From the NCBI GenBank assembly GCA_035995165.1, contig DASYKU010000096.1, forward strand, positions 1 to 64,000: a stretch of DNA of 64,000 nucleotides, in the 5' to 3' direction. The notes under the pieces are model-generated. The model was not told the DNA's origin. It ran no database searches and saw only the letters and a program-made list of their open reading frames with translations. Positions 17,220 to 59,353 of this stretch are shown here, in pieces; the first letter of the stretch is position 1, and each line of letters starts with the position of its first letter. This DNA comes from Mycobacteriales bacterium. GTDB lineage: Bacteria > Actinomycetota > Actinomycetes > Mycobacteriales > CADCTP01. Both the position numbers and the translations under genes were made by a program.

Positions 17220-17327
17220 CGAATTCCTCCTCGCCCCGGCCGGTCCGCGTATCAGCGGGCCGGGCCGGAGCCTCTGTTTGTGCGTCGCCGGAACGGGCCG
17301 GCGTACCGACTTCACGGGGTCTTGAGA

Positions 17328-18341
17328 ATGCCGATCGCGTCGTACGGGGTGCTGTCCGCTCGGGCCGTCGAGCGCCGGACCGAGCAGGCCGATCTCGACT
17401 CACCGCATTATCAGATCCATCTCGTCGACGACGCCGGAGTGCACTACCGCGCCGCGGTGAACGTCAAGTCGGCCCAGCAGCCGCCGGACCTGCTCTACCT
17501 GGCCGAGGACGACTTCCGGCACCCGGTGACCGCGATCCTGGCCGGGCTGCCCTCGGGCTGGACGCCGCTGCCGTCGGCCCCGGGTGCGGGTGCGCTCGAC
17601 TTCATCCGGGCCAACCTGCTCGACCCGGCCGCGATGCGCGGCGTCCCGGCCGGCGCGCCCGGCGCCGACAACGACCTGGCCGACCTGCTCGACCACCATG
17701 TCCTGCGGGCCATCGCCGACCCCGCCGCCGTCCTCTACCTGTACGGGCAGCGGTGGGGCCCGGAGACCGTCGCCGACAAGGTCTTCGGCTTCAGTCCGGG
17801 CAACGGCGTGCACGACGTGCACATGAACCAGGGCAACGGCGGCGGGTTCGCCCGCGACAACGGGGTCTGGCAGGACGGCGCGCTGCTGCTGCACTGCCCG
17901 GCCGAGGAGCGCTGGGTGGGGATCTTCCTGGCGTTCCAGAGCCAGGCCTGGCACACCGACGACCGGACCGGCAACCCGCTGCCGACCGGACGCACCGGGC
18001 CGTCCGGCCCGGCCGACCCGGAGCGCGTCCGGATCGTGGCCGCGCTGGTGAACCCGGTCGGCCCGGCGCCGGAACGGGAGACCGTGACGCTGATCAACGC
18101 CTCGCCGCAGCCGGTCGACCTGACCGGCTGGGCACTGGCCGACCAGCTCAAGCACACCTGCCCGGCCGGGGACGGGCCGCTGCCGCCCGGCGGGGCCGCG
18201 GTGGTGACCGTGACCAACGGCGTACAGCTCGGCAACCGCGGCGGGCTGATCACGCTGCTCGACCCGGACGGGACCAAGGCCGACGGCGTCTCCTACACCG
18301 GCGACCAGGCCCACCGCGAAGGCTGGACCCTCGTCTTCTAG
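17328..18341 (+). CDS. DUF2278 protein with C-terminal lamin-tail domain
   Basis: A 337-residue protein from ATG 17328 (MPIASYGVLSARAVERR). The DUF2278 core (YukJ-like) covers about residues 1-225, with IHLVDDAGVHYRAAVNVKS, LDFIRANL, VHDVHMNQGN and WVGIFLAFQSQAWHTDD. Residues ~235-337 form an immunoglobulin-like lamin-tail domain (RETVTLINASPQPVDLTGWALAD...). There is no signal peptide. The family has no established biochemical function; the domain pairing is common for it. Transcribed alone, divergent from the SCO6745-family gene. Confidence 0.8.
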   Translation: MPIASYGVLSARAVERRTEQADLDSPHYQIHLVDDAGVHYRAAVNVKSAQQPPDLLYLAEDDFRHPVTAILAGLPSGWTPLPSAPGAGALDFIRANLLDPAAMRGVPAGAPGADNDLADLLDHHVLRAIADPAAVLYLYGQRWGPETVADKVFGFSPGNGVHDVHMNQGNGGGFARDNGVWQDGALLLHCPAEERWVGIFLAFQSQAWHTDDRTGNPLPTGRTGPSGPADPERVRIVAALVNPVGPAPERETVTLINASPQPVDLTGWALADQLKHTCPAGDGPLPPGGAAVVTVTNGVQLGNRGGLITLLDPDGTKADGVSYTGDQAHREGWTLVF

Positions 18342-50543: not shown

Positions 50544-51434
50544 TCACGGCGAGCCGCCGCACCGCCCGTCCCCGGAGCGGTAGCCGGGCGTGAACTCCAG
50601 CCGCAGCGTGTCGGTCCGCGGGACGACCAGCGCCGCGCCGTCGCCCGCGGTCCAGCCGGCCGGCAGGAAGAAGTACTGGTCGCCGGACTGCAGGACGAGC
50701 TTGAGCCCGTCGTACCGGTAGCGGTACGCGGCGTCCGGGCCGGCGCAGGTGGTCTCCGAGACGCCGGGGCCGCTCAGGCCGAGCCCGCGCTCGCTGTAGA
50801 GGACGGCGTCCGGCCAGGCCGGCAGCGCCGCCACCATCTCCTGCGCCCGGCCGGTGCCGATCCCGGTCGCGTAGCTGCCGACCGCCCAGAACAGGCCGAC
50901 GCTGGTGAGCACGAACGCGGCCACCCACTCGGCCAGCCCGAGCTCGGCCCGCAACCCGGCCGGCACCTCGGCCCGCTGCCGGCGCTCCAGCAGCCGTGGC
51001 ACCGAGACGGTGACCGCGATGACGCCCGCCGCGAGGCTGAGGCCGCCGAGCTCCGGCGCGGTGTCGCCGACCGTGCCGCCGAGCGCCAGCGCGACCGCGG
51101 CCAGCACGATCAGCGCGACGCCGGCGACGGCCAGCGCCGGCAGGGCGCGGCGCAGCACCGTCTCCCGGGTCGCCAGGTCGAGCACGCCGAAGACCACCCG
51201 GATCAGCCAGAGCACGAGCAGCACGAGCGCGGCGGTCAGCACCAGCGGCAGGAAGATCCCCTCGACGCTGCGGATCAGGTAGTCCTGGACGGTCATGTCC
51301 AGCGTCGTGAAGTTGACCCCGAAGTAGCGGCAGTAGCCGGCCACGTACGTCTGTCCGAAGTAGAGCAACAGTCCGGTCAGCAGACCGGTGGGCGCGACGA
51401 CCGTCCCGAGCAGCCGCAGGACCCGCGGGATCAC
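50544..51434 (-). CDS. Multi-pass membrane protein of the CHAT locus
   Basis: A 296-residue protein I do not recognise by family. Five or so hydrophobic helices occur at about residues 8-28, 58-85, 95-118, 130-145 and 165-185. A C-terminal soluble domain of ~110 residues (SERGLGLSGPGVSETTCAGPDAAYRYRYDGLKLVLQSGDQYFFLP...) follows. Two conserved-looking cysteines there (Cys ~227 and Cys ~292) could form a disulfide if the domain is outside. Its GTG start overlaps the lipoprotein stop (GTGA), tying it to the CHAT gene. An envelope anchor or sensor for the locus is a reasonable guess only. Confidence 0.55.
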   Translation of the reverse strand: MIPRVLRLLGTVVAPTGLLTGLLLYFGQTYVAGYCRYFGVNFTTLDMTVQDYLIRSVEGIFLPLVLTAALVLLVLWLIRVVFGVLDLATRETVLRRALPALAVAGVALIVLAAVALALGGTVGDTAPELGGLSLAAGVIAVTVSVPRLLERRQRAEVPAGLRAELGLAEWVAAFVLTSVGLFWAVGSYATGIGTGRAQEMVAALPAWPDAVLYSERGLGLSGPGVSETTCAGPDAAYRYRYDGLKLVLQSGDQYFFLPAGWTAGDGAALVVPRTDTLRLEFTPGYRSGDGRCGGSP

Positions 51435-52102
51435 GGTTGCGCCGTCTCGCTCGCCGGCGGGTCCGATACCTCCGGCGCGGTCGAGGTGTCCGATGTGGAC
51501 GCCGAGTCGTCGGCCGGCGGTGAGGTGGTGGTGTCGTCCGGTTGGCCGCAGCCGGTGGAGATCGTCGCGGTGATCCTGGCGCCGCGCGGCACGATCGAGT
51601 TGGTGTTGCCGTCCGAGACCTTCGGCGGGTCCGACTCCCAGACGAAGCCGCAGGTGCCGTCGTCGTCGACGGTCCTGTACGTCACCGTGAGGCAGCCGGG
51701 CGCGCCGTCCGGGCTTCCGCAGGCGGCGACGACGCCGTCCCGGAACGCCTGCTCGCCGATCTCCGGGATGCGGATCGACTTCGGCAGACCGATCTTCCGG
51801 CCGTGGTCGTCGCCGGACTTCCCGCCCCCGCCCGAACCGTTCCCGCCCGAACCGTTCCCGCCCGAGCCGCCGCCGTCCGAGCTGCCGCCCGAGCCGCCCC
51901 CGTTCGAGCCGCTGCCGGCGTCGTCCGCGCCGGAGGAGGTCGCCGGGTCGTCCGGCACCATCGTCGGCCCGCTCGTCGTGACCGAGCCGCTCTCGCCCGG
52001 CGCGGGCAACCCGCCGCCGGCGACCGGGTCACCCCCGTTCGCCCCGCACCCGGCCAGCAGCGCCGCCAGCACTGCCGCCGTCCCCGCCCATCGCGCTCTC
52101 AT
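51431..52102 (-). CDS. Lipoprotein with PASTA-like domain, CHAT locus
   Basis: A 223-residue lipoprotein: the signal MRARWAGTAAVLAALLAGC ends in the lipobox LAGC. A long Ser/Gly/Asp-rich spacer (repeats of GGSGG and GGNGSGG) follows. Residues ~105-190 (IRIPEIGEQAFRDGVVAAC, then WESDPPKVSD, then VPRGARITATISTGC) follow the PASTA layout of IPE-opening, DPP turn and VPxGxxxxxxxSxG end. PASTA domains bind wall muropeptides or beta-lactam-like ligands in kinases and penicillin-binding proteins. A Thr/Ser/Asp-rich tail closes the chain. The gene overlaps the CHAT reading frame by 74 bp, which is exceptionally long. Confidence 0.55.
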   Translation of the reverse strand: MRARWAGTAAVLAALLAGCGANGGDPVAGGGLPAPGESGSVTTSGPTMVPDDPATSSGADDAGSGSNGGGSGGSSDGGGSGGNGSGGNGSGGGGKSGDDHGRKIGLPKSIRIPEIGEQAFRDGVVAACGSPDGAPGCLTVTYRTVDDDGTCGFVWESDPPKVSDGNTNSIVPRGARITATISTGCGQPDDTTTSPPADDSASTSDTSTAPEVSDPPASETAQP

Positions 52103-54935
52103 GCTCTCCGGACGGGCCCGGCGCCGGATTGATACCGCCGGCGCCGAAGCAGACGAACCCCGCGGCGGCCACCCAGCTCGCGCTCGCCCGGTCCGGCTGC
52201 TCCCGCCGGGCCAGCATCAGCGCGGCGGCCGGCCCGAGACCGTCGCGCAGGTGCCGGTGCAGGCTGAGCATCACCGGCCGGCTGGCCTCGTCCGGCACCG
52301 GGACGACGCTGCCGACCAGGCTGCCGACGCCCAGCGCGAGCAGCGCCGCGGCCAGCCCGACCAGCTCGTCGCCCGGGTGCACCGCGGACAGGCCCGACTC
52401 GCAGGCCGACAGCACCACCTGCCGCGGCGGGCGGTCCAGCCGCTCCAGGTCGTGCACGGTGAGCGGACCGTCCACCAGCGACAGTGCGGAGAACAGGGGG
52501 TTGTCCGCGCGGAACCGGCCGTGCGCGGCGACGTGCGCCAGCCCGGCCCCGTCCAGCGCCCGGGTCACCGCCGCCACCGTCGCGTCCGGGCCGGTCAGCC
52601 GGAGCGCGTCCGGGTGCCGGGCGGCCAGGTCCGCCACCTCCGCGGCCGCGTACGGGAGGTCCGGTCCCGCCGCCAGCACCAGCCGGCCGCCGATCGGCGC
52701 CGCACCGGCGGCCGCGCGGTACCAGAGCGCGGCCGAGGGCGCGACCGCGATCGGGCGGTCGGCGAGCCCGGGCAGCGCGCCCCAGGGCAGCGCGTGCAGC
52801 GCGCCGGTCGGCACCAGCACCAGCGGCCGGTCGGCGAGCTCGGCCCGCAACGGACGGAGCAGCGCCCGCTCCAGCCGGTCGGCCTTGTCCGCGACGAGCG
52901 GCGCCGCGCCGGCGGACCCGGCCAGCAACCGGCGCAGCCCGTACCGGAGGGCGGTGAGGTCGCGCTCCACCGGCGGCAGCGGACCGAGCCGGTGCAGCGT
53001 GAGCATGGTGCTGGTGACGACGACCGCGTGCAGCTCGCCGTCGACCGCGACGTACTCGACCAGCGCCGCCGGCCCGAGCACCGTCCGCAGCCGGTCGACC
53101 GGCACCGGCCCGGCCGGGGCGACCCCGGTCCCGCGCGAGCGCAGCGCCCGCCGCCGTACGGCCTCCTCCAGGGTCGCCTGGCGGGCCCGCAGCGCGGCGG
53201 TGTCGGTGCCGGCGGCCGCGGCCGCGCCGGCCTCGGCGACCACCTGGCGCAGCTCGGTCAGCTCGGGCGCGCCCTCCGATCGGGCGCGCCGCAGCAGCAG
53301 CGCGCCGGCCCGCCAGCGCTCGCTCCAGTCCAGCACCGAGCCGGCGTCCCCGGCGGCCACCGCGAGCCGGACGCCGAGAGCGGCCAGCTCGCCGGCGTGA
53401 CCGGCGGCGTGCACGCGCAGCTCGGTCGCGCCGAGGCTGGCCCGGAACCGGTCGAGCACCGCCATCCCCGAGCGCAGCGCCGCCTCCGCCCCGGCACCGT
53501 CCCCTTCGGACAGTCGCAGCAGGGCGCGGGCGTGCCAGAGCCGGGCCCGCAGCTCGGCCGGTCCCTGGACGGTGTCGGGATCCAACCCGGCCAGCGTCCG
53601 CCGCGCGGTCGCCGGGCGGCCCAGCGCCAGCGCCGCCCGGGCCACGATCAGCCGCGCGTCCGCCGCCTCCACCACCCACCCGGCCGCGGCCAGGGCCGCC
53701 GCCGTCCGCCGCCCGGCCCGCACAATCCCCTCGCCCCCGGAGTCGCCCGAACCGCGGTCCGAATCGCCCCCGAGGCCATGGTTCGGGCCCGCGGCCGGGC
53801 CGCCGGTCGAGCCGCCGACCGGCCTGCCGGCGGAGAGGGACCCGGCACTGCCGACGGAGCCGGCCCCGGCACTGCCCGCGGAGCCCGCCCCGGCACTGCC
53901 CGCGGAGCCGGCCCCGGCACTGCCGGGGGCACCCGCCCCGGCGCTGGCGGAGCGGGCTCGGAGGGAGAGGTAGCCGGCCAGGGCGGCCCAGCCCGGCCGC
54001 TGCTGGGCCAGCGCGGCCCGGCGGGCCCGGTCGGCCTGCGCGGCGGCCAGCGCCGGGTCGCCGTCCAGCAGCGCGGCCCGGGCCAGGACGAGCCGGGCCT
54101 GGACCAGGTCGACCGCGTTGCGCTGGGCCGCGAACTGCTCGACCGCCGCCGCCGCGGCCCGCCGGGCGTCCGCGACCAGCAGCACCGACAGCAGCGCCTC
54201 GGCCCGCTCCACGCCGAGCAGCCCGGGATCCCGACCGGTCGCCGCGTACAGCTCGGCGGCCTCGTCGAAGGCGGCCAGCGCCGCCGGCAGGTCCCCGCGG
54301 ACGGCCGCGGCCAGCCCGCGGTTGTGGTGGACGGTGGCGAGCTTGCCCTCCTGGCCGGCCGCCGCGTAGAGGTCGGCGGCCCGGCGCAGGTCGTCGGCCG
54401 CGCCCCGCCAGTCCCGCGCCTGCACCCGCAGCACGCTGCGGTTGTTGCGCAGGTCGCCCTCGACCACCGGGTCGCCGCCGGCCCGCCGCAGTGCCGCCAG
54501 GGCCGCGTCGTAGCCCGCGGCCGCCTCGGCGAACCGGCCGGCCTCGGACAGCACCAGCGCCCGCTGCATCCGGACCCGGGCGCCGACGACGCCGCGCAGC
54601 ACCGCCGCGGCCCGGTCGAGCTCGGCCAGCGCCTCGCCGGTACGCCCGCCGAGCGCGAGCAGGTAGCTCAGCGACGCCCGCGCCTCCGCCGCCCGGGACG
54701 CCAGCCCGGCCCCGTCCGCGACCGCGATCGCCGCGCGCAGGTGGGTCTCGCCGGTGGCCAGCTCGCCCAGCGCGGTGCCGGCCATGCCCAGCGCCCGCTC
54801 GGCCACCGCGGCCGGCTCGGGATCGCCGTCGGCGGCGGCCAGCGCGGCCCCGGCCAGCCGGCGGGCCCGCGGCGGCTGCCCGTACGCGGAGTCGACCGCG
54901 GCCAGGGCCAGCTCCAGGGCCGGCATGTCGATCAT
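52029..54935 (-). CDS. TPR-CHAT caspase-like protease
   Basis: A 968-residue cytoplasmic protein. About 500 residues of helical tetratricopeptide-type repeats (AALAAADG..., AGRTGEALAELDRAAAVLRG, GDLPAALAAFDEAAELYAATGRDPG) are broken at ~335-390 by a Gly/Ala/Ser linker with 8-residue tandem repeats. The C-terminal CHAT domain has the caspase dyad: His805 in LAHVAAHGRFRADNPL and Cys845 in VVLSACESGLSAVHPGDE, plus PWGALPGL upstream. CHAT proteins cut partner proteins or act in conflict and cell-death systems when their repeats sense a trigger. It leads a run with a lipoprotein and a membrane protein and is divergent from a subtilase-sigma operon. The ATG at 54935 has a weak ribosome site; ATG 54926 is close. 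Confidence 0.85.
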   Translation of the reverse strand: MIDMPALELALAAVDSAYGQPPRARRLAGAALAAADGDPEPAAVAERALGMAGTALGELATGETHLRAAIAVADGAGLASRAAEARASLSYLLALGGRTGEALAELDRAAAVLRGVVGARVRMQRALVLSEAGRFAEAAAGYDAALAALRRAGGDPVVEGDLRNNRSVLRVQARDWRGAADDLRRAADLYAAAGQEGKLATVHHNRGLAAAVRGDLPAALAAFDEAAELYAATGRDPGLLGVERAEALLSVLLVADARRAAAAAVEQFAAQRNAVDLVQARLVLARAALLDGDPALAAAQADRARRAALAQQRPGWAALAGYLSLRARSASAGAGAPGSAGAGSAGSAGAGSAGSAGAGSVGSAGSLSAGRPVGGSTGGPAAGPNHGLGGDSDRGSGDSGGEGIVRAGRRTAAALAAAGWVVEAADARLIVARAALALGRPATARRTLAGLDPDTVQGPAELRARLWHARALLRLSEGDGAGAEAALRSGMAVLDRFRASLGATELRVHAAGHAGELAALGVRLAVAAGDAGSVLDWSERWRAGALLLRRARSEGAPELTELRQVVAEAGAAAAAGTDTAALRARQATLEEAVRRRALRSRGTGVAPAGPVPVDRLRTVLGPAALVEYVAVDGELHAVVVTSTMLTLHRLGPLPPVERDLTALRYGLRRLLAGSAGAAPLVADKADRLERALLRPLRAELADRPLVLVPTGALHALPWGALPGLADRPIAVAPSAALWYRAAAGAAPIGGRLVLAAGPDLPYAAAEVADLAARHPDALRLTGPDATVAAVTRALDGAGLAHVAAHGRFRADNPLFSALSLVDGPLTVHDLERLDRPPRQVVLSACESGLSAVHPGDELVGLAAALLALGVGSLVGSVVPVPDEASRPVMLSLHRHLRDGLGPAAALMLARREQPDRASASWVAAAGFVCFGAGGINPAPGPSGEHESAMGGDGGSAGGAAGRVRGERG

Positions 54936-55028
54936 CGTCCCGTCCGATGCCGCTAGGGTGTATCAACCACGCGTACGGAACCTCCGTTCGGCAGACAGTA
55001 GCCCGAGGGTGAGCGAGGGGAGGCCGAG

Positions 55029-55958
55029 ATGCCGATGCGCTTGCAGGCCGGCGGCCGGCAGCCGATGGGGCCCGCCGACCGCCCGATCCTGGTGCCGGAG
55101 CTGTCCGCCCGCGAGGCGGACTTCGTGGCCGCCGGGCCGCGGGTCGACCCGGACCTCGTGGTCGGTGTGGTCGACACCGGGATCGTGCTCGACGACGGCC
55201 ATCCGCATCCCTTCCTGGCCGGCCACCTCGCCGGCGAGCCGGCCGACTACGCCGACCTGCGCGCCGAGGACGACCTCTACCGGGGCCACGGCAGCTTCGT
55301 CGCCGGCCGCATCCTGCTGGAGGCGCCGACCGCGACCATCGACATGCGCCGGGTGCTGCTCGGGGCGGGCGACCGGCAGGCCGACAACGACGCGGCGGTC
55401 GCGGCCGCGATCCGCGCGCTGGCCGCGGACAACGGCAACCGGCTCGCGGTCGTCAACCTGTCCTTCGCCGGCCACTGGGAGGAGCGGTCCGGGCCGACGG
55501 AGATCGCGGCCGCGCTGGCCGCGCTCGGCGACGTGCCGGTGGTCGCCGCCACGGCCAACCGATGGGACGACCGGCCCAGCTGGCCGGCCGCGTTCAGCAG
55601 CGACCCGGGCAGCAACGTGCTGGCCGTCGGCGCGGTGGACGAGACCGTCCTGCCGGAGGCGCCGCTCGCGTTCTCGCTGACCGAGCCGACGGCCTCGTTC
55701 GCCAGCCGCTGGTCCGGCATCACCGTGTACGGCTCGGCCGTGCGGGTGCTCGGGCCTCGGCTGACCGGCGGCTGGTGCCGGTGGAGCGGGACGTCGTTCG
55801 CGGCGGCCTCGGTGAGCGGGATCCTGGCCCGGCTCGGTGCCCGCGCCGGCACCTGGGCCGACCTGATCGGCCACGTGCCGATGGTCGAGGACAAGCCCTG
55901 GCTGCGCAGCGCCGAGGCGATCGAGTTCGAGCACACCGGCGGCGGCCATGCGGGATGA
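55029..55958 (+). CDS. Signal-less S8 subtilisin-family serine protease
   Basis: A 309-residue subtilase with the full catalytic set: Asp49 (VVGVVDTGIV), His87 (YRGHGSFVAG), oxyanion Asn177 (VAATANRWDD) and Ser256 (WSGTSFAAASVSG). There is neither a signal peptide nor a long prodomain, so it is predicted to act in the cytoplasm, which is uncommon for the family. ATG 55029 has GGGGAGG 6 nt upstream. Its stop lies 11 bp inside the next gene, an ECF sigma factor. Divergent orientation to the CHAT protease gene puts two proteases under one intergenic region. The target could be the sigma factor, the partner protein or a CHAT product; none is shown. Confidence 0.9.
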   Translation: MPMRLQAGGRQPMGPADRPILVPELSAREADFVAAGPRVDPDLVVGVVDTGIVLDDGHPHPFLAGHLAGEPADYADLRAEDDLYRGHGSFVAGRILLEAPTATIDMRRVLLGAGDRQADNDAAVAAAIRALAADNGNRLAVVNLSFAGHWEERSGPTEIAAALAALGDVPVVAATANRWDDRPSWPAAFSSDPGSNVLAVGAVDETVLPEAPLAFSLTEPTASFASRWSGITVYGSAVRVLGPRLTGGWCRWSGTSFAAASVSGILARLGARAGTWADLIGHVPMVEDKPWLRSAEAIEFEHTGGGHAG

Positions 55959-56511
55959 CACCCCGGTCGCCGACCTCGTCAAGCGGGCGGCCGCCGGCGA
56001 GGCGGATGCCTGGAACCGGATCGTGGACCGGTACGCGGCGCTGGTCACGTCGGTCTGCCGGCGGCACCGGCTCGGCGACGCCGACCTCGAGGACGTCGGC
56101 GCGACGGTCTGGCTGCGGCTGGTCGAGCGCCTGGACTCGCTGCGCGAGCCGGCCGCGCTGCCCGGCTGGCTCGCCACCACCACCCGCAACGAGTGCCTGG
56201 CCGTGCTGCGGGCCCAGGGCCGGCTCGGCACCACGGACCAGCAGCTGATCACCGACGAGGGCCCGGCGCCGGAGGAGTTCCTGCTGGAGCAGGAGCGGCG
56301 GGCGGTGCTGCGGGAGGCGTTCGCCGACCTCGGCGAGAAGTGCCGGCAGCTGCTGGCGCTGCTGTTCGCCGATCCCCCGCTGCCGTACACGGAGATCTCC
56401 GGCCGGCTCGGGATCGCGGTCGGCGGGATCGGCCCGACCCGGTCGCGCTGCCTGGACACGCTGCGGGCGCACCCGGCGATGTCCGCCCTGCGCGGACCGG
56501 GGACGGGGTGA
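55948..56511 (+). CDS. ECF-type RNA polymerase sigma factor
   Basis: A 187-residue sigma factor with region 2 at ~10-80 (KRAAAGEADAWNRIVDRYAALVTSVCRRHRLGDADLEDVGATVWLRLVERL) and WLATTTRNECLAVLRAQGR. Region 4 is at ~125-180 (AFADLGEKCRQLLALLFADPPLPYTEISGRLGIAVGGIGPTRSRCLDTLR). It is of the short ECF kind, related to those next to CHAT and protease genes in actinobacteria. It overlaps the subtilase by 11 bp and the next gene by 4 bp, so the three proteins should be made in fixed ratio. A GGAACC at 54977 upstream of the operon could be its own -35 element. Confidence 0.9.
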   Translation: MRDDTPVADLVKRAAAGEADAWNRIVDRYAALVTSVCRRHRLGDADLEDVGATVWLRLVERLDSLREPAALPGWLATTTRNECLAVLRAQGRLGTTDQQLITDEGPAPEEFLLEQERRAVLREAFADLGEKCRQLLALLFADPPLPYTEISGRLGIAVGGIGPTRSRCLDTLRAHPAMSALRGPGTG

Positions 56512-56951
56512 CCGCGGTGCCGGACGAGCGGGACGACGACCGGCTGCTGGCCGAGCTCGGCGCGGCGGTGCGGGACGAGGCGGCGGTGCCGGACGGGCTC
56601 CGCCGGGCCGGTCGGGCCGCGTACGGCTGGCGCACGGTCGACGCCGAGCTCGCCGAATTGGAGGCCGCGCCGGCCGGGGCGGTCGGGACCCGGGCCGCCG
56701 GCGACGAGCCGCGGGCGCTGCGGTTCCGGGCCGGCGAGGTGCTCATCGAGGTCGAGCTGACCGCGGACGGCCTGCAGGGCCAGGTGGTGCCGCCCCGCGC
56801 GGCGCGGATGACGCTGGAGACCGCGTCCGGGACGGCGCAGACCACCGAGGTCGACGTCGTCGGCTGGTTCCTGTTCAGCCCGCCGCCGCGGGAACCGTTC
56901 CGGCTGCGGCTCGACCCGCCGGCCGTGGTGACGAGCTGGACCCGCCCCTGA
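56508..56951 (+). CDS. 147-residue partner protein of the subtilase-sigma operon
   Basis: From GTG 56508, overlapping the sigma stop (GTGA). The N-terminal ~50 residues are acidic and helical (DERDDDRLLAELGAAVRDEAAVPDGLRRAGRAAYGWRTVDAELAEL). The remainder is a beta-rich domain (LRFRAGEVLIEVELTADGLQGQVVPP..., EVDVVGWFLFSPPPREPFRLRLDPPAVVTSWTRP). There is no membrane helix and no zinc-finger HxxxCxxC, so it is not a classical anti-sigma factor. Its position directly after the sigma gene nonetheless suggests sigma control or a sensory role. I cannot name the family with certainty. Confidence 0.6.
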   Translation: MTAVPDERDDDRLLAELGAAVRDEAAVPDGLRRAGRAAYGWRTVDAELAELEAAPAGAVGTRAAGDEPRALRFRAGEVLIEVELTADGLQGQVVPPRAARMTLETASGTAQTTEVDVVGWFLFSPPPREPFRLRLDPPAVVTSWTRP

Positions 56952-57469: not shown

Positions 57470-59197
57470 TCAGGAGACCGTCAGCGCCGCGTCGTCGACC
57501 ACGAAGCTGGTCTGCAGCGACGTGTCCTCGGTGCCGCTGAACGAGAGCGTCACGCTGGTGCCGGCCGCGCCGGTCAGGGTGAACGACCGCGCCGTGTAGC
57601 CCGCGGCCTTGTTCAGGTTGGAGAACGTGGCGAGCGTCGTCGCGCCGGCCTTGACGGTCAGCTTGTCGAACGCGGTCGTCGTCGTGGTCTCCGCGGTGTC
57701 GATGTGCAGGAAGAAGGAGAACACCACGCTGGTGCACCCGCTCGGCACCGTCACGGTCTGGGAGAGCGTGTCGGTGTGGGTGGTCCCGTAGCCGTCCAGC
57801 CACGCCTTCCAGGTGCCGGCGTGGGTGGCCTCACCGGCGGCGTTGGTGACGACGCCGGCGGTGGCGGTCCAGGGTGCGGCCGTACCGGTCTCGAAGCCCG
57901 GGTTGCCGATCAGCTGGCCGGCGGTGCAGCCCGGCGGGGGCGGCGGCGGGGTGGTGCCGCCGGCACCGCTGAACGCGGCCACGCCGTTGGGCGTGCCGAG
58001 GCCGGTCGGGCCGTCCCAGCCCACACCCGCGTGGCAGAGGATCGCCGGGGTGCAGGTGCCGTTGCTGCCGGTGGTCACGTCGAACAGGTTCGCCGTGTGC
58101 GACCACGGGAACGAGGCCGGCGAGGAGCCGACGGCCGGGGCGCCGGCCAGCGCGTACACCGACGCGATGATCGGCGAGGACACGCTGGTGCCGCCGTAGA
58201 CGACGAAGCCGGTGGCGCCGAAGGTCTGGAAGACCGCCACGCCGGTGGCCGGGTTGGCGACCGCGGAGACGTCCGCGTTGGCCTTGCGGGTGCACTGGGT
58301 GACCGCGGTCTGCCAGGCCGGCTTGGGCTGGATCGTCGAGCAGCCGCTGCCGGCGCCGGTCCAGGCGGACTCGCTCCAGCCGCGGGCGCTGGTGTCGCGG
58401 GTCAGCGAGGTGCCGCCGACCGCGGTGACGTGCGAGTCGGAGGCCGGGTACTCGACGCCGAAGCCGTCGTCACCGGTGCTCGCCGTGATCGCCACGCCGG
58501 GGTGGTTGTACGCCGAGGACGCCGTGCCGTCGCCGCCGCCGTAGGAGTTGGAGACGAACTTCGCGCCCAGTGCGACCGCCTCGTTCACCGCGGTGCCGAG
58601 GTTGGCGTTCGTCGGCGAGGTGGCCTCGACCAGCAGGATGTGGCAGGACGGGCAGATCGCCGAGACCATGTCGACGTCGAGCGAGATCTCGCCGGCCCAG
58701 CCGGCGTCCGGTGCCGGGAAGGTGGTGCCGCCGGTCTGGTTCACCTTGCGGAAGCAGCCGTTCGCGGTCGTGCACGCGGGCAGCCCGTAGGTCGAGCGGT
58801 ACGTGGCCAGGTCCGACTCCGCGTTGGGGTCGTCCTGGGCGTCCACGATGGCGACGGTCTGGCCGGCACCGCCCGCCCCCAGCTTGTACGCGCTGGCGAG
58901 GTCGGCGGGGCCCAGTCCGGACGGCAGTGCGTTCGGCTGGACGGCGTTCGGGGCCAGGTCCGTACGGAGTAGTGCGTCGCAGTGCGCGACGTTCTTCGCC
59001 GTGGCGGTCGAGCAGACGCGACGGTAGGCAGCGGGGGTGATCTTGGCGGCGGGCTTCGCGGGAACAGTGACCGTGGCGCCGGTGGGCGCGAGGGCACTGC
59101 TGGTAGGTGCGGCGGTGGCCGCGCCCGCGGCGCCCGACCAGGCGATCGTCGCTGCGGCCAGCGCAGCGAGAACGGCCGGTACGGACGGACGGCGCAT
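57470..59197 (-). CDS. Secreted S53 (sedolisin/kumamolisin-like) peptidase with C-terminal adhesion domain
   Basis: A 575-residue exported protein from ATG 59197. The signal peptide is [24 protein letters not shown]. The S53 core has the acidic pair in [12 protein letters not shown] (Glu and Asp of the Ser-Glu-Asp triad) and the serine in [35 protein letters not shown] near the end of the catalytic domain fits the calcium-site region. After a short Pro run, ~145 residues ([19 protein letters not shown]...) form a carbohydrate-binding or P-domain-like beta sandwich. Such enzymes are pepstatin-insensitive acid peptidases. The long propeptide normal for the family looks short here. Confidence 0.88.
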
Positions 59198-59353
59198 GCT
59201 TCCTCCTCGGAGGAGAACGGGACACACGCACCGTGACAGATGGCCTACAGATATTTCGCCCATCGGAACGGCTCAGATTACTCAAGAGACAGCCAAATGA
59301 CCGATCCACCACTCCACCACTCGGCCGTATGGGTGACTCCGCCAAAGAGAAGA

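What the first reader, a model, noticed from the sequence alone, without database searches (positions are those of the whole stretch)
50544..56951. Divergent two-protease locus: TPR-CHAT caspase-like protein facing a cytoplasmic subtilase, ECF sigma factor and partner
Seen: on the minus strand, a CHAT protein (His805/Cys845), a PASTA-like lipoprotein and a membrane protein, joined by overlaps. On the plus strand, a signal-less S8 protease (Asp49/His87/Ser256), an ECF sigma factor and a 147-residue protein, overlapping by 11 and 4 bp. The two runs share one 93-bp intergenic region. Known: CHAT proteases with TPR sensors and associated serine proteases occur in conflict and cell-death systems. 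Inference: an envelope signal caught by the lipoprotein or membrane protein could be relayed through proteolysis to release the sigma factor or trigger cell death. I know of no characterised example with this exact composition.
Basis: partly seen in the sequence, partly recalled or inferred. Interest (0 to 1): 0.85.

Follow-up and report, generated by a model that had tools for sequence, protein, structure and literature searches.

The report
Two-protease sigma-factor switch, known type
This is one copy of a bacterial gene module, already noted in surveys but apparently never studied at the bench, in which two protein-cutting enzymes probably release a gene-switching protein from its small partner; we add a likely DNA recognition site for that switch, which makes the idea testable.

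Summary
The genes are as described: CHAT (His805/Cys845), S8 protease (Asp49/His87/Ser256), sigma factor and 147-aa protein (P6), with the stated overlaps. The "six-gene locus" is really a four-gene module (TPR-CHAT | S8-sigma-P6) beside an unrelated lipoprotein-membrane cassette. Of 80 sigma-anchored named loci, 74 have P6 adjacent; of 56 with full flanks, 43 also carry both proteases. Catalytic residues are intact in every complete copy. The cassette occurs at none of the other 120 loci. This neighbourhood is already published as the context of sigma group ECF54: a new member of a known kind. Added here: (1) P6 is a helical pair plus a carboxypeptidase-regulatory-like Ig domain, so the literature's "carboxypeptidase" is probably not a peptidase; (2) a bipartite promoter-like site, GTATCA-N16/17-CTCTG, precedes the S8-sigma-P6 operon (54960) and, in this genome, a DUF2278-lamin-tail gene (17249); (3) relatives' S8 has a subtilisin-type prodomain that this copy lacks. 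Best explanation: cytoplasmic proteases inactivate P6, an anti-sigma-like partner, as Craspase and CalpL do with theirs. The promoter element is well supported; P6 as inhibitor and substrate is inferred. Envelope sensing and cell death are unsupported.

The parts
52029..54935 (-). TPR-CHAT caspase-like protease (His805, Cys845); module core
   Evidence: Pfam CHAT 2.2e-36; His and Cys kept in all complete relatives; near sigma-P6 in 44 of 56 fully flanked loci
55029..55958 (+). S8 (subtilisin-like) protease without signal peptide and without the N-terminal prodomain seen in relatives; module core
   Evidence: Pfam Peptidase_S8 2.6e-19; triad kept in all complete relatives; prodomain comparison
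55948..56511 (+). ECF-type sigma factor, probable ECF54 group; module core
   Evidence: NCBIfam sigma70-ECF 3.2e-20; family alignment A2
56508..56951 (+). P6: 147-aa soluble protein, N-terminal helical pair plus carboxypeptidase-regulatory-like Ig sandwich; constant partner of the sigma factor, candidate anti-sigma factor
   Evidence: Directly downstream of sigma in 74 of 80 loci; CarboxypepD_reg in 21 of 37 relatives; model
54960..54986 (+). Promoter-like site GTATCA-N16-CTCCG, 42 bp before the S8 start codon
   Evidence: 23.2 bits, second best in the window; conserved across module loci
17249..17276 (+). Second promoter-like site GTATCA-N17-CTCTG, 51 bp before the DUF2278 gene
   Evidence: 27.9 bits, best in the window; expected about 0.02 such sites in the genome
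17328..18341 (+). DUF2278 plus lamin-tail-domain protein, predicted target gene in this genome
   Evidence: Pfam DUF2278 5.6e-76, LTD 3.3e-11; site not conserved at other DUF2278 genes
51431..52102 (-). Lipoprotein-like ORF; adjacent, not a member of the conserved module
   Evidence: No relative of its C-terminal part in 296 other genomes of the class; absent from other module loci
50544..51434 (-). Membrane protein; adjacent, not a member of the conserved module
   Evidence: Relatives in 17 of 297 genomes, not at module loci

Best explanation
A cytoplasmic, proteolysis-controlled ECF sigma switch. The sigma factor (probable ECF54) is kept inactive by the co-translated P6 protein, whose N-terminal helical pair binds sigma. 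An internal signal read by the TPR part activates the CHAT protease. CHAT cuts P6 directly, or acts together with the S8 protease, so that sigma is freed. Sigma then transcribes from GTATCA-N16/17-CTCTG promoters: its own S8-sigma-P6 operon (positive feedback plus fresh inhibitor) and a small, species-specific target set, here a DUF2278-lamin-tail gene. Shown by sequence: the four-gene module, intact catalytic residues, and a conserved bipartite site with sigma-like spacing at promoter distance. Inferred: that this sigma reads the site, that P6 is the inhibitor, that P6 is the protease substrate, the order of the two proteases, and the signal.
For: Conserved co-occurrence of the four genes; catalytic residues kept; P6 overlaps sigma by 4 bp here, follows it in 74 of 80 loci, and stays with it where CHAT and S8 are missing nearby; the site precedes whichever of S8, sigma or P6 comes first, with 53 strict matches against 0 reversed in 2.17 Mb of loci and 60 of 111 against 2 of 111 by strand; precedents in which a cytoplasmic protease cuts an inhibitor of an ECF sigma: Csx29/Csx30/CASP-sigma (PMC10028731) and CalpL/CalpT/CalpS (PMC11417357).
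Against: No binding, cleavage or transcription data. P6 shows no recognised anti-sigma domain in Pfam, and its helical pair was not searched on its own. The position matrix was trained partly on the loci it was counted in. Micromonospora loci have the module without the site. The DUF2278 site is not conserved at other DUF2278 genes. Two proteases are one more than the precedents need.
Confidence: 0.45

Rival explanations
1. The proteases act on the sigma factor itself: S8 and CHAT keep sigma levels low and a signal stops them. P6 is an adaptor or chaperone that presents sigma to them, not an inhibitor.
For: This is the published proposal for ECF54, proteolytic control without an anti-sigma factor (PMC8999054 section 3.3).
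Against: P6 is the most constant neighbour and stays where the proteases are absent nearby; the proposal appears to have counted the regulatory-like domain of P6 as a carboxypeptidase (inference).
Confidence: 0.2
2. P6 is a positive factor or an effector, and CHAT and S8 are the sigma-controlled output (for example a proteolytic stress or conflict response) rather than its controllers.
For: The site drives the S8-containing operon; CHAT and subtilase proteins occur as effectors in conflict systems (general knowledge; weak PADLOC matches).
Against: CHAT itself lies on the other side of the gap and the site points away from it; no match to a complete defence system; no P6 relative in phage records and only one plasmid-collection match, in an 11.8-Mb chromosome-sized record.
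Confidence: 0.2
3. The lipoprotein and membrane protein are the input: they sense the envelope and pass the signal to the proteases.
For: The lipoprotein ORF overlaps the 3' end of CHAT here; a one-mismatch site lies just upstream of it, though it scores only 8.8 bits.
Against: Neither gene is found at any of the 120 other module loci; elsewhere the pair stands on its own.
Confidence: 0.04

Closest known systems
ECF54 sigma-factor group and its gene neighbourhood (primary sources Huang 2015 and Casas-Pastor 2021, read here only through the review PMC8999054)
   Same: Actinobacterial ECF sigma with subtilase, CHAT protein and a 'carboxypeptidase'-domain protein in its gene context; proteolytic control proposed
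   Different: The review reports no anti-sigma factor and treats the third protein as a carboxypeptidase; here it is a non-peptidase regulatory-like domain protein and a candidate inhibitor. The promoter element and prodomain loss are not mentioned there
Craspase: Csx29 (TPR-CHAT), Csx30 and CASP-sigma of type III-E CRISPR (PMC10028731)
   Same: TPR-CHAT protease encoded with an ECF sigma and a small partner protein; logic of protease, inhibitor, sigma
   Different: No CRISPR effector among the module genes, an additional S8 protease, and P6 has no detectable sequence match to any PDB chain of that system
CalpL/CalpT/CalpS of type III CRISPR (PMC11417357)
   Same: Cytoplasmic protease cuts a soluble anti-sigma factor to free an ECF sigma
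   Different: Lon protease fused to a SAVED sensor, not CHAT plus S8
EACC2/TRADD-N caspase systems with an ECF sigma (PMC8195603)
   Same: Caspase-fold protease encoded beside an ECF sigma and a TPR protein
   Different: Different adaptor domains; the passages found describe no S8 protease and no P6-like protein

Membership tests
ECF54 sigma group | Sigma-2 and sigma-4 ECF architecture | tested here: met
   NCBIfam sigma70-ECF 3.2e-20; Sigma70_r2 1.9e-10, region 4 weak
ECF54 sigma group | Gene context with subtilase, CHAT and a carboxypeptidase-type domain | tested here: met
   text of PMC8999054. Equating P6 with the 'carboxypeptidase' is inference
ECF54 sigma group | Score above the group's own HMM threshold | not testable with these tools
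   The ECF group models and the two classification papers are not held
CHAT protease (Pfam PF12770) | CHAT fold with catalytic His and Cys | tested here: met
   126 bits against a cut-off of 24; His805 and Cys845 aligned
Subtilase (Peptidase_S8) | Asp/His/Ser triad in S8 fold | tested here: met
   70 bits against a cut-off of 21.8; Asp49, His87, Ser256 aligned
Craspase (type III-E) | Csx29-type TPR-CHAT protein | tested here: not met
   NF041237 at 20.4 bits against a cut-off of 300
Craspase (type III-E) | Small partner inhibits the ECF sigma and is cut by the CHAT protease | not testable with these tools
   Needs biochemistry
Type VII secretion mycosin | Mycosin model above cut-off | tested here: not met
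   TIGR03921 at 45.7 bits against a cut-off of 278.75
   No Pfam family at E up to 1

The most novel reading that the evidence does not exclude
A widespread, CRISPR-free chromosomal counterpart of the Craspase pathway: TPR-CHAT (with an S8 partner) cuts P6, a new soluble anti-sigma family built on a carboxypeptidase-regulatory-like domain, to release an ECF sigma that drives GTATCA-N16/17-CTCTG promoters and small, lineage-specific regulons (DUF2278-lamin tail, haem peroxidase, patatin and similar genes).
Probability: 0.35. Interest if true: 0.8.

Novelty: new member of a known kind. Interest (0 to 1): 0.52.

Why it matters
How ECF54-type sigma factors are switched is an open question; the review consulted offers only a proposal. 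A named constant partner (P6), a specific predicted promoter and a predicted target turn it into a simple reporter and cleavage test. If P6 is an anti-sigma factor cut by a TPR-CHAT protease, the Craspase-type cascade would be a general actinobacterial signalling scheme rather than a CRISPR speciality.

Tried and rejected
1) P6 alignment as query for genome contigs: no stretch conserved enough; the sigma alignment was used instead. 3) Lipoprotein-membrane pair as module members: rejected. A one-mismatch site upstream of the lipoprotein scored only 8.8 bits, and only 1 of 15 fetched membrane-gene loci had a strong site upstream. 4) DUF2278 as a conserved target: of 16 DUF2278 starts inspected only this genome's carries the site, so it is a species-level prediction. 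5) Gene fusions among the four proteins: none. 6) Distance-matrix correlation of sigma, P6 and S8 (0.79-0.83): all travel together, so it singles out no interaction; the CHAT column failed on fragments and was not repeated. 7) Fold search with P6: only Ig/FN3-like sandwiches for residues 67-147; the helical pair was not tested on its own. 8) Apparent loss of the S8 serine in Streptomyces relatives was an alignment artefact of split domain hits. 9) First intergenic alignments were spoiled by over-extended ORFs. 10) Further literature searches on this module found nothing closer than the ECF54 sentence; the two classification papers are not held, so a published ECF54 promoter motif cannot be excluded.

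Full report
Observation. Every gene described is present at the stated coordinates, with the stated overlaps (S8/sigma 11 bp, sigma/P6 4 bp, CHAT-S8 gap 93 bp), catalytic residues and family assignments. Two corrections: the lipoprotein overlaps CHAT by 74 bp, and no PASTA domain is detectable in it. I call the 147-aa protein P6.

What is conserved. A search with P6 found relatives in 63 of 297 genomes of the class, and four copies in this genome. Around 41 such loci, profile searches found the sigma gene beside P6 in the same direction in 38, S8 in 29, CHAT in 30 and both in 27, with CHAT and S8 divergent in 21 of those 27. An independent, sigma-anchored scan of named genomes gave P6 directly downstream in 74 of 80; of the six exceptions three end within 0.8 kb of the contig edge. 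Of 56 loci with at least 6.5 kb on both sides, S8 lies near in 46, CHAT in 44, both in 43, and the exact layout of this window in 31. The scan kept the 80 best matches to this sigma factor, so these are frequencies among its closer relatives. Named hosts include Streptomyces, Micromonospora, Nonomuraea, Amycolatopsis, Actinomadura, Solirubrobacter and Acidimicrobiia. Within Streptomyces P6 occurs in 46 of 150 genomes, so the module is accessory. The membrane protein and lipoprotein were found at none of the other 120 loci. Elsewhere the membrane protein occurs in 17 of 297 genomes, often right after a lipoprotein-like ORF and not beside CHAT. So the module has four genes, and the lipoprotein-membrane cassette is a neighbour.

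Active enzymes. All complete CHAT copies keep His and Cys, and all complete S8 copies keep Asp, His and Ser. In relatives whose start codon can be placed by the promoter-like site, S8 mostly carries about 150-200 residues before the catalytic Asp, or slightly fewer. A model of one relative (mean pLDDT 85, pTM 0.89) folds the first part of this extension with high confidence, and its best PDB match is unprocessed pro-subtilisin E: a zymogen-like prodomain. The copy in this window has only 48 residues before Asp49 and lacks that domain; there is no room upstream, because the promoter-like site lies there.

P6. No family is found for the window protein itself, but 21 of 37 aligned family members match CarboxypepD_reg, a carboxypeptidase regulatory-like domain, at weak E-values (best 1.5e-5). 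The AlphaFold model shows two helices (7-22, 29-46), a poorly predicted linker and a beta sandwich that resembles Ig/FN3-type domains. I infer that the 'carboxypeptidase' named in descriptions of the ECF54 neighbourhood is P6, and that it is not a peptidase. In one family the sigma-P6 pair sits without CHAT or S8 nearby, in a constant gene neighbourhood, so P6 is the constant partner of sigma. Co-translation with a 4-bp overlap is typical of sigma/anti-sigma pairs (general knowledge).

Promoter. Enumeration of all 5-mer/gap/4-mer pairs in the CHAT-S8 gaps gave TATCA-N16/17-CTCT as the top pair in the S8 direction, in 10 of 51 loci; the maximum in each of 20 shuffled sets was 4-6. The strict form GTATCA-N15-17-CTCTG has 53 matches in 2.17 Mb of module loci, and the reversed pattern has none. 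Spacing is 16 in 34, 17 in 17 and 18 in 1 of 52 instances, all within about 100 nt of an in-frame start codon and mostly 27-60 nt. A sense-strand site of at least 20 bits lies upstream of sigma in 60 of 111 loci, against 2 of 111 on the other strand; the matrix was trained on part of these loci. The site precedes S8 mostly, or sigma or P6 where those come first. In twelve whole genomes, chosen because a site had been seen in or near the module locus, GTATCA-N16/17-CTCTGT gave 22 matches against 0 reversed; the choice biases the count, but several matches lie away from the module. Across the class the shorter 11-base pattern is only modestly enriched: 58 matches against 25 reversed in the 63 P6-positive genomes, and about 116 against roughly 85 in the rest (my hand tally). 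Micromonospora loci lack the site. It is therefore a conserved element of many copies of this module; that the linked sigma reads it is an inference from position, spacing and linkage.

Targets. In this genome a strict pattern gives three matches (control one): upstream of S8 (54960), upstream of a DUF2278-lamin-tail gene in the same window (17249, gene 17328-18341), and upstream of an unknown ORF of at least 489 aa on another contig. A relaxed pattern adds sites before a P6 paralogue and a response-regulator-like gene. The expected number of sites as good as the DUF2278 one in this genome is about 0.02 under a simple base-composition model. DUF2278 genes elsewhere lack the site. Candidate targets in other genomes include haem peroxidase, catalase-peroxidase, patatin-DUF3376 and a vWA protein. 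The regulon looks small and lineage-specific.

Known systems. The neighbourhood is that of ECF54, for which regulation by proteolysis without an anti-sigma factor has been proposed (PMC8999054 section 3.3). Membership by the group's own HMM could not be tested. The closest working precedents are Craspase, where TPR-CHAT Csx29 cleaves Csx30, an inhibitor of an ECF sigma (PMC10028731), and CalpL/CalpT/CalpS (PMC11417357). This locus is not Craspase: the Csx29 model scores 20 bits against a cut-off of 300, and no CRISPR effector is among the module genes.

Mechanism and verdict. The best reading is a cytoplasmic switch: signal, TPR-CHAT, cleavage of P6 (with S8 as helper or amplifier), free sigma, own operon plus a few targets. 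The module, catalytic integrity and promoter-like element are shown; who binds and who cuts whom is inferred. As a gene neighbourhood it is known; the P6 reading, the promoter-like element and the prodomain loss are, as far as I could check, additions. Envelope sensing and cell death have no support.

Noticed in passing
window 17249-18341 (+): The best match in the window to the module's promoter-like site lies 51 bp upstream of a DUF2278-lamin-tail-domain gene, 37 kb from the module.
   Followed up: yes
window 50544-52102 (-): Lipoprotein plus membrane protein form an independent two-gene cassette; membrane-protein relatives occur in 17 of 297 genomes, often behind a lipoprotein-like ORF, function unknown.
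   Followed up: partly
own genome contigs C26, C92, C160 (L033, L035, L034): Three further P6 genes, two with their own sigma and CHAT; the C26 copy has no sigma gene beside it but a weaker promoter-like site upstream.
   Followed up: partly
L049, L050, L053 and similar loci: Sigma-P6 pair without CHAT or S8 nearby, behind a large phosphodiester-glycosidase-like gene in a constant neighbourhood; L049 and L053 carry a variant site GTATCT-N16-CTCTG.
   Followed up: partly
L038, L091, L101, L108, L120, L133 (Micromonospora group): Complete modules that lack the GTATCA-CTCTG site, so this group may use another promoter.
   Followed up: no
window 53802-53945 (inside the CHAT gene): Five overlapping 48-nt repeat copies at 24-nt spacing encode a low-complexity Ala/Gly/Ser linker within the TPR part of the CHAT protein.
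   Followed up: no
window 57470-59263 (-): A secreted, sedolisin-like protein (my reading of the sequence, not tested against a library) lies next to the module; it looks like an unrelated exoenzyme.
   Followed up: no
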